Source of the DNA: Prevotella sp.
GTDB lineage: Bacteria > Bacteroidota > Bacteroidia > Bacteroidales > Bacteroidaceae
DNA: 64,000 nt
Direction of reading: 5' to 3'
Assembly (NCBI GenBank): GCA_017471465.1
Contig: JAFUTI010000008.1
Coordinates: forward strand, 1-64,000
Shown here: positions 25,293 through 48,106 of the stretch, one piece after another
How positions within the stretch are numbered: the first letter of the stretch is position 1
How the letters are laid out: each line of letters starts with the position of its first letter
Notes under the pieces: generated by a model
Told to the model about the DNA's origin: nothing
What the model saw: the letters and a program-made list of their open reading frames with translations, nothing else
The model's database searches: none
Made by a program: the position numbers and the translations under genes

Positions 25293-25303
25293 CACCCGAT
25301 TTT

Positions 25304-25380
25304 CAAGGGGTGCCCACTGTCGTGGGCTGAGATGATACCCTCAAACCTGATTCGGATAATGCCGACGTAGGGATAGAAAG
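25304..25380 (+). ncRNA. TPP (THI-box) riboswitch
   Basis: The aptamer has the conserved THI elements in order: AGGGGTGCCC, GGGCTGAGATGATACCC, ACCTGAT, GGATAATGCC and CGTAGGGA. These define the thiamine pyrophosphate aptamer. It lies 52 bases upstream of the TonB receptor start. The usual effect is to shut off expression when TPP is plentiful; here a short distance to the ATG suggests control of translation or of a nearby terminator. Confidence 0.95.
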
Positions 25381-25431
25381 TATTATTGTTCCCCCTTTAT
25401 ATTAGTTTTTAATTAAAGGTAAAAAAACAGT

Positions 25432-45116: not shown

Positions 45117-46646
45117 TCACAGCGCGAACTTCAGCGTCCGGCCGTTGATGGTCAGGATATACACCTGGCCCTGCTGTAGGGCAATCTTCCGTGTGCCGTC
45201 GTTGATGACGGTGTTCACCACCTGCTGACCATCGCTGCCGTAGATGATGCAGCGGCTCTGCGGTTCGGTATTGCTGATGATAATGCCGTCGCTAACCACC
45301 TTGATGTCTGCCTGCGAACGGGTGGCGGCCCTTGCATCTGACGGTGCCCCCTCTTCGTAGACGATGATGATTGAGGTGTCGCCCGTGATGACTGGCGTCA
45401 CGAAAGTACCGTCTTCAGCAAGTCTTGATGTCACATAGCGGCCGTCCATGAAGATGTTGCTAATCTTCCATCCCTCTTCAGCCGTAAAGTTCAGCGTCTG
45501 CTCGGCGCCCTGCTTCACCTTGATCTTTGTGTATCCGCTACGGCTGTCATTCACCGTCAGCCAGGCGAACACCTCGGGCTCCGGCTCTTTCACGGACATA
45601 CCGTAAACTACCAAATCGTGTGCCGGCATCGTTGCGGGGTAAGTGTACCAGGTGACGGTATTCCCTTCGTTGTCCTTTGTTGGCGCTGTTATCTGGCTGC
45701 CGTAAGCTATGTTTTGTACAGACAGTTCTTTGTTGTCTACAATAAATGTCAGGCGGTACTTGGCCGTTTCGCCAGTCATAATTGGCGAAATTCCATTCCA
45801 ACTGAGTGTGGCAGTGGCAACGTCAGAGTTGTCATAGCCAGTTTTGGTGGCATAGACACTGACTGTATAGGTCGCTGTCAGGGGAACTGTCGCATCATAA
45901 TGTTTCTTAATGTCTGTATTCGTTATCTCCGACACATAATCAACTCCTTCTGTCTCACAATCAAACCTCAATTGCCCATCCTTACATGATATTGTCGGTG
46001 TAGCACACTTTGGCGTCTCGGGAATCTCTCCACCATCGATGGCAACAATATTCTTAAAGCTGCTCCAAGGAGCTGTAGTTTTGTACGCATTAACGGAGGC
46101 TGCAGGTACATGCAAGGTTGCGTATTCAATATATGAGCCATTAAATATACTGCTTTTCGCATTTGGAACATTCTCTGCCAAACAAGTAACGTCTGCGAGA
46201 TTTTGACAATTGCTAAAGGCTTCAGCATCAATTGTTTTTACATTACTTCCAATAGTCAATGATGTCAGGCCGCTGCAATCATAGAAAGCATAAGCGCCAA
46301 TTGATGTCACGCTGTTGGGGATATTGACGAAGGTCAGGCCGCTGCAGCCAGAGAAAGCATAACCACCAATTGTTGTCACGCTGTTGCCGATGGTGACGGA
46401 GGTCAGGCCGCTGCAACCACGGAAAGCATTACTACCAATTGATGTCACGCTGTACTCTACGTTATTATAGCTGACAGACTCGGGGATTGCAATGTTTCCT
46501 GTGTATGAATTAGGATCTTTAGTAACCTCGGCATAATTATCGTTCTTGGCTATTAGAGTGTAATAGATGCCGTCAATTTCCACGGCGTCAGCGTTTGCCA
46601 CCATAGGCAGTATAATAAATATGATAAGGAATAATTGCTTTTTCAT
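45117..46646 (-). CDS. BspA-like leucine-rich repeat surface protein
   Basis: This 509-residue protein has a signal peptide ([19 protein letters not shown]) and four BspA/TpLRR repeats near residues 70-150 (e.g. [20 protein letters not shown]). BspA-type repeats bind host proteins such as fibronectin and fibrinogen in oral Bacteroidales. A C-terminal region holds an Ig-like domain and a sorting-tail-like end ([13 protein letters not shown] ... [13 protein letters not shown]). The DNA of the repeats is itself repetitive (about 69-bp units near 46240-46460). The start at 46646 gives a normal signal peptide; nine codons upstream are unlikely. Confidence 0.88.
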
Positions 46647-46709
46647 AATTGCTCCTAATATTTTTGTTTCCACAATGTTTTTTTATATGAGTAACGTATC
46701 ATTTATAAC

Positions 46710-46910
46710 TCAATCAATTATAATATCGTTCCGATGCTGTAGTTCTTTTCGTACGATTTCACGCTCTTGGTCTGTCAGAGATGATGTTTCGAAACTTTCT
46801 GTGAAAATTCGAAAACAATCAGAATCAAGATGACCAGCAACCTTAACAATTTTCTCGCCAAGGTGAATTTCTATTAAATCCCCCTTTCTAACAAAATTGA
46901 CCTTATCCAT
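46710..46910 (-). CDS. Small hypothetical protein
   Basis: This 66-residue acidic protein (MDKVNFVRKGDLIEIHLGEK onward) has no signal peptide. Its first 30 residues form a compact beta-strand-rich stretch (FVRKGDLIEIHL, KIVKVAGHL), and the rest is helical. No family was recognised. The upstream region to 46975 has a strong hairpin that ends another transcript, so it would be a short separate unit. Codon use looks like that of the neighbours. Confidence 0.55.
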   Translation of the reverse strand: MDKVNFVRKGDLIEIHLGEKIVKVAGHLDSDCFRIFTESFETSSLTDQEREIVRKELQHRNDIIID

Positions 46911-46971
46911 AATCTATATTATTTATTATCAGTGTTCCCTTCCTGATAGATTAGAGTTATATGGCTAATAT

Positions 46972-47253
46972 ATAAAAAGAGCGTGGGAATCTACCTGTTA
47001 CTCGTCCCACGCATCGAGGCTCTGGCATCGCCTTGAATGTTGAACGAGCAACGCCGAAGCCCACGCCGATATGTATATATACGACAATGTCGGATACTAC
47101 ATACCCATAGGCGTCATTGTTGCGTTGTTCTTGACATTCAGTTTGGAACTGCCAGATTCCGATGCGTCAAGCACAAAGTGCAGATAACGCTTTTCCTATA
47201 TATAGGTCTCCACCCAAATGTCCCACGTCATGCGGGGCTTCGGTATGAAGACG
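46972..47253 (-). ncRNA. Candidate structured small RNA with own promoter and terminator
   Basis: The minus-strand region between a promoter (47257-47288) and a terminator hairpin (46981-47012) has no open frame of note but many stems. The 5' end (CCGAAGCCCCGC, complement 47232-47243) pairs with a later CCGAAGCCCACGC-type segment (complement 47054-47066), apart from one mismatch and enclosing about 165 bases. Inner hairpins include a CCTATATATAGG palindrome (47195-47206), GCAC...GTGC nested in GCGT...ACGC near 47165-47190, and CGACAATGTCG. The layout of a long closed rod resembles 6S RNA, but I could not verify this. The RNA family is unknown. Confidence 0.45.
46975..47012 (-). terminator. 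Terminator of the candidate small RNA
   Basis: TCCCACGC (47005-47012) and GCGTGGGA (46981-46988) form a perfect 8-bp stem with a 16-base loop. On the minus strand it is followed by TCTTTTTATA. Confidence 0.65.
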
Positions 47254-47292
47254 CAGCAAAGATAGCAAATAAATCTGAAAGTTCCAAGAAAA
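47250..47292 (-). promoter_or_regulatory. Promoter of the small RNA (first copy of a 43-bp duplicated promoter)
   Basis: CTTG (complement 47285-47288), 20 bases, TATCTTTG (complement 47257-47264). The 43 bases are identical to 48064-48106, which drives mntA-hepT. Confidence 0.65.
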
Positions 47293-47303
47293 TACACAAA
47301 AAA

Positions 47304-47336
47304 ATCTCCGAAGCCGCACTATAGGACTTCGGAGAT
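47304..47336 (-). terminator. Terminator of the mntA-hepT operon
   Basis: ATCTCCGAAG and CTTCGGAGAT form a perfect 10-bp stem with a 13-base loop. On the minus strand a T7 run follows. It lies 69 bases past the HepT stop. On the + strand a second hairpin (GTGATGC 47343-47349 with GCATCAC 47385-47391, then T7) stands in the same gap. Confidence 0.8.
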
Positions 47337-47404
47337 ATTTGGGTGATGCGAGCTGTGGACTTCTGAAACAATCTCAGCCCATAGGCATCACGGTTTTTTT
47401 AGGG

Positions 47405-47761
47405 TTATGTTACACTATTTAATTCCTCAATATATTGAGAAATCTGTTGCTTTAGCAACGGTAAGTCATTGGTGTAGGTTTCCCAAATTAACGTTGCATT
47501 TGTCGTGATATAGCCATGTACTAATACATTTCGCATATCTACGATATCACGCCAAGGCACCTCCAGATGGTTGTCGCGGAATTCTTTGGTCAGAAGATTG
47601 GCCGCTTCACCTAATATCATGATGTTATAGACGACGGCATGAAAACACATTATGTTTGCTTTCATGTCTTCGAACGACTTCCCATTGAGATAGTCATTAA
47701 TGTGCTCTATGCACTCGTCAATATGGCGAAGACGATCAATGTCTCTAATTGCTTCTCTCAT
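47405..47761 (-). CDS. hepT: HepT-like HEPN toxin
   Basis: This 118-residue all-helical protein has the HEPN RNase motif R-x4-H-x-Y (RNVLVHGY near residues 77-84). The HepT family is the toxin half of the MNT-HEPN systems, an RNase that the partner inactivates by attaching AMP to it. It overlaps the antitoxin gene by 17 bases and would be translated after it. The motif and the pairing are clear. Confidence 0.9.
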   Translation of the reverse strand: MREAIRDIDRLRHIDECIEHINDYLNGKSFEDMKANIMCFHAVVYNIMILGEAANLLTKEFRDNHLEVPWRDIVDMRNVLVHGYITTNATLIWETYTNDLPLLKQQISQYIEELNSVT

Positions 47762-48044
47762 AAATCACTTTTAAGTCGCGGTTTGCAGTAATCTGCGCAG
47801 CAGGACGAAGGGTGCCTTCTTCTACGAGGTCGACTTTGCGTCCCAGTCTTTCTTCCAGTTCGCGGTGCATACGTACAAACGCAAACAGACCTATGGGGAG
47901 ACTACGATCGAATTTCACAATTAAGTCTACGTCGCTGTCTTCGCGCTCCTCGCCGCGCGCATAGGAGCCAAAGAGCCATGCCTTCAGGACGGGTTGTGTC
48001 TTGAAGTATTCGGCTATCAGTTCTGTCATTGTCTGCTGGCTCAT
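47745..48044 (-). CDS. mntA: MntA-like nucleotidyltransferase antitoxin
   Basis: This 99-residue protein has the minimal nucleotidyltransferase motif LFGSYARGEEREDSDVDLIV (G-S-x10-D-x-D). In the type VII MntA-HepT system it attaches AMP to the HEPN toxin and so silences it. The start used is MSQQTM at 48044; 19 more codons upstream overlap the promoter (-7 box complement 48071-48078) and are rejected. The toxin gene overlaps its end by 17 bases. Pairing and motif make the assignment firm. Confidence 0.9.
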   Translation of the reverse strand: MSQQTMTELIAEYFKTQPVLKAWLFGSYARGEEREDSDVDLIVKFDRSLPIGLFAFVRMHRELEERLGRKVDLVEEGTLRPAAQITANRDLKVIYERSN

Positions 48045-48063
48045 ATTCCGTACTGTTTGAGAT

Positions 48064-48106
48064 GACGCAGCAAAGATAGCAAATAAATCTGAAAGTTCCA
48101 AGAAAA
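48064..48106 (-). promoter_or_regulatory. Promoter of mntA-hepT (second copy of the 43-bp duplication)
   Basis: Same 43 bases as 47250-47292, with CTTG and TATCTTTG 20 bases apart. The -7 box (complement 48071-48078) ends 26 bases before the MntA start. Confidence 0.65.

What the first reader, a model, noticed from the sequence alone, without database searches (positions are those of the whole stretch)
46972..47264. Possible new structured RNA with its own transcription unit
Between the mntA-hepT terminator and the small gene 46710-46910 lies a region with a promoter, no frame, many nested stems, a long-range 12-bp pairing that closes about 165 bases, and a terminator with a T-run. It looks like a free-standing regulatory RNA, perhaps 6S-like or a novel Bacteroidales class.
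Basis: partly seen in the sequence, partly recalled or inferred. Interest (0 to 1): 0.75.

Follow-up and report, generated by a model that had tools for sequence, protein, structure and literature searches.

The report
New Bacteroidales gene-leader RNA switch
This stretch is one copy of a large folded RNA, not listed in the RNA family database, that sits at the start of many unrelated genes in gut and rumen Bacteroidales and probably decides, by changing shape, whether transcription stops or runs on into the gene.

Summary
The RNA lies on the minus strand, about 47252-46973, with a Bacteroidetes-type promoter and a hairpin plus U-run, and matches no Rfam 15 family. It is not free-standing or 6S-like. 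Homologues occur in 287 of 398 searched genomes of the genus and 75 of 393 of the order, several per genome. A same-strand ATG frame starts within 100 nt of the U-run in 87 of 95 loci, median 68, and in 51 of 59 further loci; random positions 36%. The promoter motif precedes the RNA (57 of 87) but is in 0 of 79 segments between U-run and gene, where 2.7 were expected. Target genes are unrelated. Two helices covary beyond a phylogenetic null, a third by strand permutation. A pseudoknot and the terminator share strands; a later hairpin complements the terminator arm. Best reading: a new class of cis-acting attenuation leader, riboswitch-like, signal unknown. A NusG-like group carried by some copies was not found in two complete genomes that have the RNA, so it is not the universal regulator. 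No transcript data were available.

The parts
47257..47287 (-). promoter: -33 TTG (47285-47287), 20-nt spacer, -7 TATCTTTG (47257-47264); the consensus is recalled
   Evidence: sequence; TAnnTTTG 40-140 nt upstream of the 5' box in 57 of 87 loci, shuffled expectation 4.0, and 55 of 61 further loci
46973..47252 (-). structured leader RNA up to the end of the U-run (5' end inferred from the promoter)
   Evidence: fold z -7.46; homologues and covariation
47206..47252 (-). 5' stem P0: GTCTTCA (47246-47252) with TGGAGAC (47206-47212); variable 5' domain
   Evidence: minimum-energy fold; coordinates; covariation not tested
47184..47190 (-). helix H, 5' strand GCGTTAT (conserved 5' box); partner ATGACGC 47111-47117
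   Evidence: cols 11-14/81-84 94% canonical with compensatory change; 82.6% canonical over 9 pairs; 78.6%
47166..47170 (-). helix A, 5' strand TTGAC; partner GTCAA 47131-47135; competes with helix E
   Evidence: cols 29-33/63-67, 96% canonical in 165 rows, 78.3% in the 24-row alignment
47159..47167 (-). helix E, 5' strand ACGCATCGG
   Evidence: 5 pairs never reached in 60 phylogenetic null alignments; 97.2% paired
47009..47017 (-). helix E, 3' strand TCGATGCGT; its last two bases are the first two of the terminator 5' arm GTGGGA
47150..47156 (-). helix F, 5' strand TCTGGCA (loop of the GGAA/TTCC hairpin 47145-47160)
   Evidence: 3 pairs never reached in the null; 100% paired
47021..47027 (-). 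helix F, 3' strand TGCCAGA
47134..47141 (-). helix B, 5' strand; partner 47034-47041 (hypervariable, up to 8 bp)
   Evidence: mean complementary run 7.25 against 3.43 (sd 0.08) when 3' strands are dealt to other loci, 148 sequences
47042..47067 (-). conserved core GGCGTGGGCTTCGGCGTTGCTCGTTC, contains the 5' strand of pseudoknot helix C (47042-47052)
   Evidence: nearly invariant; CM R1 108.1 bits (the window was one of the 24 training sequences)
46997..47007 (-). helix C, 3' strand GGACGAGTAAC, overlaps the terminator 5' arm and loop (pseudoknot)
   Evidence: 11 bp, 98.6% canonical; sets CTCG/CGAG 106, TCTG/TGGA 5, CTTA/TAAG 2 of 165 rows; not significant pair by pair
46973..47012 (-). terminator-like hairpin GCGTGGGA (47005-47012) / TCCCACGC (46981-46988) with U-run 46974-46980
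   Evidence: cols 221-226/244-249, 94% canonical, at most one break in 153 of 165 rows; compensatory changes
46929..46946 (-). post-terminator hairpin K; loop GGGAA (46935-46939) complements terminator 3' arm TTCCC
   Evidence: co-variation of loop and arm: 4.99 vs 4.30 (sd 0.08), 98 loci; 5.58 vs 4.68 (sd 0.13), 66 non-overlapping loci
46710..46910 (-). first downstream gene, 66 aa, no Pfam match; ATG 63 nt after the U-run
45117..46673 (-). second gene, BspA-type LRR_5 protein, 518 aa
   Evidence: LRR_5 E 8.5e-30

Best explanation
The element is a cis-acting 5' leader that controls the gene behind it by transcription attenuation. Transcription starts at the promoter near 47257 and makes a roughly 280-nt RNA. 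In the OFF fold, helix A forms and the terminator hairpin stops RNA polymerase at the U-run. In the ON fold, the rod of helices E, F and B forms, and the conserved core strand GTTGCTCGTTC pairs with GGACGAGTAAC (pseudoknot C). E and C together take up five of the six columns of the terminator 5' arm, so polymerase reads through. The freed terminator 3' arm is then captured by the loop of the next hairpin (K) before the start codon, which may also affect translation. Shown: the helices (E, F, B firmly; C, terminator and A less so), their shared strands, the position before genes, and no promoter motif in between. Inferred: that the hairpin terminates, that the two folds exchange, which fold is ON, and that a signal drives the exchange. 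The most likely signal (about one in two) is a small molecule of general physiology or a second messenger; a protein or tRNA is the alternative.
For: Same-strand ATG frame within 100 nt of the U-run in 87 of 95 loci, median 68 nt, and in 51 of 59 non-overlapping further loci, median 71; random positions 0.362, and for the 50-82 nt band 0.113 against 48 of 73. NCBI annotation agrees on two Phocaeicola plasmids: the CDS begins 61 nt after the match end. Promoter motif upstream of the RNA in 57 of 87 and 55 of 61 loci, but in 0 of 79 and 0 of 61 stretches after the U-run. Tree-aware null: 8 pairs with E<0.05, all in helices E and F. Helix B 7.25 vs 3.43. Shared-strand triple, cols 32/222/248: A-T-A in 107 and G-C-G in 21 of 165 rows, so base 222 keeps its pair both in helix E and in the terminator. 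Helix C and terminator overlap at cols 224-226 and are 98.6% and 94.0% canonical. Loop K co-varies with the terminator 3' arm.
Against: No expression, probing or termination data. Helices C, T and A do not pass the tree-aware null. In some searches paired cells and covariation score beat all 500 shuffles, but the number of further pair types does not (186 and 469 of 500 shuffles reach it), and helix F is part of both structures. Helix A is only 78.3% paired in the 24-row alignment. 0 of 79 promoter motifs after the U-run is not far below chance (2.7): it shows no enrichment, and other promoter types were not tested. U-run conservation is partly built in, because the locating script required a T-run. 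The loop of 16 nt is long for a terminator. Loop K is made after the termination decision and cannot drive it. In 30 of 87 loci the promoter motif is not within 40-140 nt; the histogram has a second peak of 28 motif positions at 140-180 nt. No metabolic theme among targets points to a ligand.
Confidence: 0.78

Rival explanations
1. Leader read by a dedicated protein antiterminator, in particular the NusG/UpxY-like protein that some copies encode directly downstream (autoregulation and control of the other copies in trans). Not exclusive of attenuation; it names the signal.
For: NusG is the first gene in 7 of 83 scanned loci and 2 of 66 of the second set; no NusG among control families with two or more members. 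In G274 and G408, five of six close relatives of this NusG group (E 4.4e-60 or better) have an RNA match at the locus, one of them weak at 30 bits. LoaP, a NusG paralogue, acts through an RNA leader hairpin (PMC12691694, passages seen).
Against: Single-contig genomes G045 and G430 have 8 and 5 RNA matches but only one distant NusG match each, E 6.7e-13 and 3.6e-13. G329, with no RNA match, has a relative at 1.8e-36. So this group cannot be the universal regulator; another protein is not excluded.
Confidence: 0.22
2. Free-standing small RNA (6S-like or other trans-acting RNA) whose place before genes is incidental.
For: Own promoter and terminator-like end; strong fold; the terminated product would be a stable ~280-nt RNA.
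Against: Narrow spacing to same-strand frames, no promoter motif between, co-variation with a hairpin beyond the terminator, no 6S family hit.
Confidence: 0.07
3. The switch acts mainly on translation or mRNA stability: the hairpin/U-run is not an efficient terminator and the K loop/terminator-arm kissing pair sets access to the start region.
For: K loop and arm co-vary, K lies shortly before the start codon, and K cannot take part in the termination decision.
Against: The terminator stem has at most one break in 153 of 165 rows; by inspection the NusG-linked copies keep stem and U-run while several lack K.
Confidence: 0.12
4. Mobile repeat or recombination site (MITE or cassette attachment site) rather than a functional RNA.
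For: Several copies per genome before unrelated genes; some contigs end near the element.
Against: In the window's genome DNA search finds no second full copy, so copies are divergent; compensatory changes keep RNA pairs; promoter and gene keep their places.
Confidence: 0.03

Closest known systems
Transcription-terminating riboswitches with pseudoknots and many targets (e.g. c-di-GMP, ZMP; details recalled, not tested)
   Same: 5' leader; terminator with competing fold; several unrelated operons per genome
   Different: No Rfam 15 match; much larger; only the order Bacteroidales was searched with the model; extra hairpin whose loop complements the terminator arm; ligand unknown
LoaP/UpxY (NusG paralogue) antitermination leaders
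   Same: Leader RNA ahead of genes, some copies ahead of a NusG-like gene
   Different: RNA occurs in complete genomes without the linked NusG group; far larger than the small LoaP hairpin described in PMC12691694 (passages)
EAR (epsC) and put processive antitermination RNAs (recalled; epsC passage seen in PMC2864571)
   Same: Structured RNA in the 5' part of operons, some surface-related
   Different: Here the RNA carries its own terminator-like end and recurs before unrelated genes; no Rfam match
6S RNA / 6S-Flavo (RF01685)
   Same: Long irregular rod-like hairpin
   Different: No Rfam hit; position, terminator and pseudoknot of a cis leader
Bacteroidales-1 (RF01693)
   Same: Bacteroidales RNA of unsettled role (table in PMC2864571)
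   Different: Not matched in the gathering scans or the E<=10 scan of the region

Membership tests
Riboswitch | lies in the 5' leader of same-strand genes | tested here: met
   87 of 95; 51 of 59
Riboswitch | conserved structured domain with covariation | tested here: met
Riboswitch | expression platform with mutually exclusive conserved folds | tested here: inconclusive
   strand sharing and co-change fit; conformers not observed; C, T, A not significant
Riboswitch | direct binding of a small molecule | not testable with these tools
   needs binding or in-line probing
Any Rfam 15 family | score at or above gathering threshold | tested here: not met
   window and 17 loci: only a tRNA in one locus and a TPP riboswitch elsewhere in the window
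6S RNA | free-standing, not a leader; family covariance match | tested here: not met
UpxY/LoaP-type NusG-paralogue leader | cognate NusG paralogue present wherever the RNA occurs | tested here: not met
   linked group not found in G045 and G430
Mobile repeat | near-identical copies with common ends within a genome | tested here: not met
   window's genome only: DNA search finds one full match, itself, plus a 46-bp promoter repeat and a 30-nt match; a second copy appears only with the covariance model. Other genomes not tested this way

The most novel reading that the evidence does not exclude
An undescribed class of very large riboswitch for a second messenger or other global signal, which through a pseudoknotted antiterminator coordinates from two to perhaps 17 accessory operons (surface LRR proteins, NusG-like regulators and many unknown genes) per genome across Bacteroidales.
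Probability: 0.4. Interest if true: 0.9.

Novelty: new variant of a known kind. Interest (0 to 1): 0.77.

Why it matters
If right, one RNA sensor controls a scattered set of mostly uncharacterised genes in gut and rumen Bacteroidales, in which few global RNA regulators are described (recalled). The ligand or factor, once found, would give the induction signal for BspA-type surface proteins, NusG-like regulators and many unknown genes together. It is also a good model for a terminator whose 5' arm and 3' arm each have a co-varying rival partner.

Tried and rejected
Rejected: 6S-like or free-standing RNA. The NusG-like group as universal trans factor. A defence regulon: 15 PADLOC models match among 83 downstream genes and 123 among 79 control genes, so there is no excess. 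My early idea that the 5' box pairs with the terminator 3' arm or with the nearby ACGCTTT: the better supported partner is GTAGATGCC (helix H), though H is the weakest helix. The structure used for model R1 (core GGCGTGGG with CCCACGC) has little compensatory support; R1 served only as a search model. Phage records: no match. One viral-collection contig matches the core; its frames were only listed.

Literature: listings, and 98 for core letters, showed no description. Passages were seen in PMC8040213, PMC12691694, PMC2864571 and PMC10994844; PMC11109978 held none of five terms. PMC7366714 was not read. PMC8040213 names Prevotella and Bacteroidetes candidate RNAs whose sequences I could not see, its supplements were not readable here, and the 2017 motif list was not held, so an unnamed entry there is possible.

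Rows dropped: 3 of 80 fetched loci without the motif; 3 of 98 without a frame, two of them near a contig end; 10 of 98 without a recognisable 5' box; 2 plasmid loci not matched by the script, 8 of 81 too short downstream, 4 of 81 without 5' box; 12 of 95 downstream proteins, short, overlapping or near-duplicate and including a NusG-like one in L179, left out of the Pfam scan. 15 of 81 second-set cores are identical to first-set ones, so searches are not fully independent of the first set.

Full report
WHAT IS THERE. The region 46972-47264 reads on the minus strand as promoter, structured RNA and hairpin with U-run. The minus strand folds with z -7.46, the plus strand with z -4.96. No Rfam 15 family reaches its gathering score there, and up to E 10 only two miRNA matches appear; in 17 homologous loci the only hit is a tRNA.

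DISTRIBUTION. BLAST with the window RNA finds 52 of 199 relatives. A covariance model of the 3' half (R1; 24 sequences) finds 287 of 398 genomes of the genus, 121 of 175 good-quality ones, and 75 of 393 of the order, in 42 of 206 genera. Ten chosen genomes give 3 to 17 matches each; low-scoring ones were not all checked, and one of the window genome's three is the opposite strand of the same place. Of eleven genomes chosen for lacking it, ten stay empty with laxer filters and one has a weak match (36.7 bits). Two Phocaeicola plasmids carry a relative, 76.7% identical over 38% of the query; phage records do not.

IT IS A LEADER. 80 loci were fetched, the RNA was located in 77, and with the window and 20 more loci 98 were analysed. 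An ATG frame of at least 45 codons on the same strand starts within 300 nt in 95; in 87 of the 95 it starts within 100 nt of the U-run, median 68. In a second set, mostly from named genomes, it is 65 of 73, median 70; 1620 random positions give 0.362 within 100 nt, and 0.113 against 48 of 73 in the 50-82 nt band. Fifteen of 81 second-set cores are identical to first-set ones; without them it is 51 of 59. The plasmid records, annotated by others, put a CDS start 61 nt after the match. The Bacteroidetes -7 motif TAnnTTTG (recalled consensus) lies 40-140 nt upstream of the conserved 5' box in 57 of 87 loci, shuffled 4.0; non-overlapping second set 55 of 61. Between U-run and start codon it is in 0 of 79 segments, 2.7 expected by chance, and in 0 of 61 stretches of 65 nt. 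That is absence of enrichment rather than strong depletion. Among the 30 misses many have a longer 5' domain; motif positions peak again at 140-180 nt (28 positions).

STRUCTURE. A covariation scan without a preset structure, on 88 and then 165 sequences, put helix E and helix F on top; by stems E has 9 bp and F 7 bp. Against 60 null alignments evolved along a FastTree tree (151 distinct rows), 8 pairs have E<0.05, all in E and F. Helix B is hypervariable and poorly aligned by columns; tested strand by strand its complementarity is 7.25 bp against 3.43 (sd 0.08) when strands are dealt to other loci, 148 sequences. Helix C, 11 bp, pairs the conserved GTTGCTCGTTC with GGACGAGTAAC across the rod, a pseudoknot. 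It is 98.6% canonical, with sets CTCG/CGAG, TCTG/TGGA and CTTA/TAAG. The terminator stem is 94.0% and helix A 96.1% canonical. C, A and the terminator do not pass the tree-aware test. On the 24-sequence alignment the proposed ON structure has 94.5% standard pairs and covariation score 0.435, against 0.218 for shuffles and at most 0.103 for slid versions. The OFF structure has 92.1% and 0.313, against 0.141 and at most 0.093. The count of further pair types does not exceed the shuffles in either, helix F is common to both, and helices H and A are only 78.6% and 78.3% paired there.

WHY A SWITCH. The same bases serve rival helices. Of the terminator 5' arm (cols 221-226), E takes 221-222 and C takes 224-226, and helix A shares cols 32-33 with E. 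Column 222 must match both col 32 (helix E) and col 248 (terminator): A-T-A in 107 rows, G-C-G in 21, other combinations in 37 of 165. After the U-run a small hairpin has a loop (often GGGAGT) that complements the terminator 3' arm (ACTCCC) and changes with it, for example GTTTCC with GGAAAC in L082 or GTCTC with GAGAC in L188. The mean complementary run is 4.99 against 4.30 (sd 0.08) for 98 loci and 5.58 against 4.68 (sd 0.13) for 66 non-overlapping loci. By inspection several NusG-linked copies lack this hairpin. Since it is made after the terminator it cannot decide termination and may act on translation or stability. That the hairpin terminates, and which fold is ON, is inferred.

TARGETS. 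Among 83 of the 95 first genes, Pfam gives LRR_5 11, NusG 7, DUF2971 5, and AbiH, SrfB, PEGA and LytTR 2 each; 35 families in all. In 66 second-set genes: LRR_5 6, PEGA 3, DUF4988 3, Glug 3, DUF2971 3, AbiH 2, NusG 2, LytTR 2 among others, 54 families. In 79 control genes from the same loci none of LRR_5, NusG, DUF2971 or AbiH is among the families with two or more members, and 132 families appear (controls were at least 100 aa, so totals are not strictly comparable). PADLOC shows no excess over controls. The targets look like accessory, surface-related and unknown genes without a metabolic theme.

SIGNAL. A NusG-like group with an N-terminal extension has the RNA at its locus in five of six cases in two genomes, one of them weak. 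Single-contig genomes G045 and G430 have the RNA but only one distant NusG match each, and RNA-free G329 has a relative at 1.8e-36. So it is a target or a local regulator, not the general one. The invariant core suits a binding site for a small molecule, a protein or an RNA; the data do not choose. I give a small-molecule signal about one chance in two.

NOVELTY. Not in Rfam 15 and not found by the searches listed under Tried and rejected, with the limits stated there. As a kind it belongs with cis-acting attenuation leaders and orphan riboswitches; the class, its size, the pseudoknotted antiterminator and the arm-complementing hairpin are, as far as tested, new.

Noticed in passing
47247-47292 and 48061-48106: A 46-bp direct repeat (98%) holds the promoter of the leader RNA and recurs just upstream of the nucleotidyltransferase gene, so the two units seem to share a duplicated promoter flanking the mntA-hepT pair.
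   Followed up: no
47408-48050: HepT-like and nucleotidyltransferase (MntA-type) pair, with a terminator-like inverted repeat at 47295-47345.
   Followed up: no
25296-25391: TPP riboswitch, plus strand, 70.2 bits.
   Followed up: no
L115, L118, L119, L136, L138, L178, L189: NusG-like proteins with a conserved N-terminal extension (TGVS, mostly SSQTGVS) directly behind a copy of the leader; some of these copies carry the helix C variant GTTGTCTGT with GGACAAC.
   Followed up: partly
L076, L097, L103, L105, L109, L114: Many of the 30 of 87 copies without a near promoter motif share a longer 5' domain (ACGCCGnGCC ... GGCGGG ... TGGG); this may be a second structural subtype.
   Followed up: no
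L090, L097, L103, L111, L175: Several copies precede large genes or operons with SrfB, FtsK/SpoIIIE or VWA (TerY-like) domains; possibly one multi-operon system with common control.
   Followed up: no
L327 539-637: A viral-collection contig (85,676 bases) carries a copy just before a 577-aa frame followed by further large same-strand frames, none scanned for domains; it may be host DNA.
   Followed up: no
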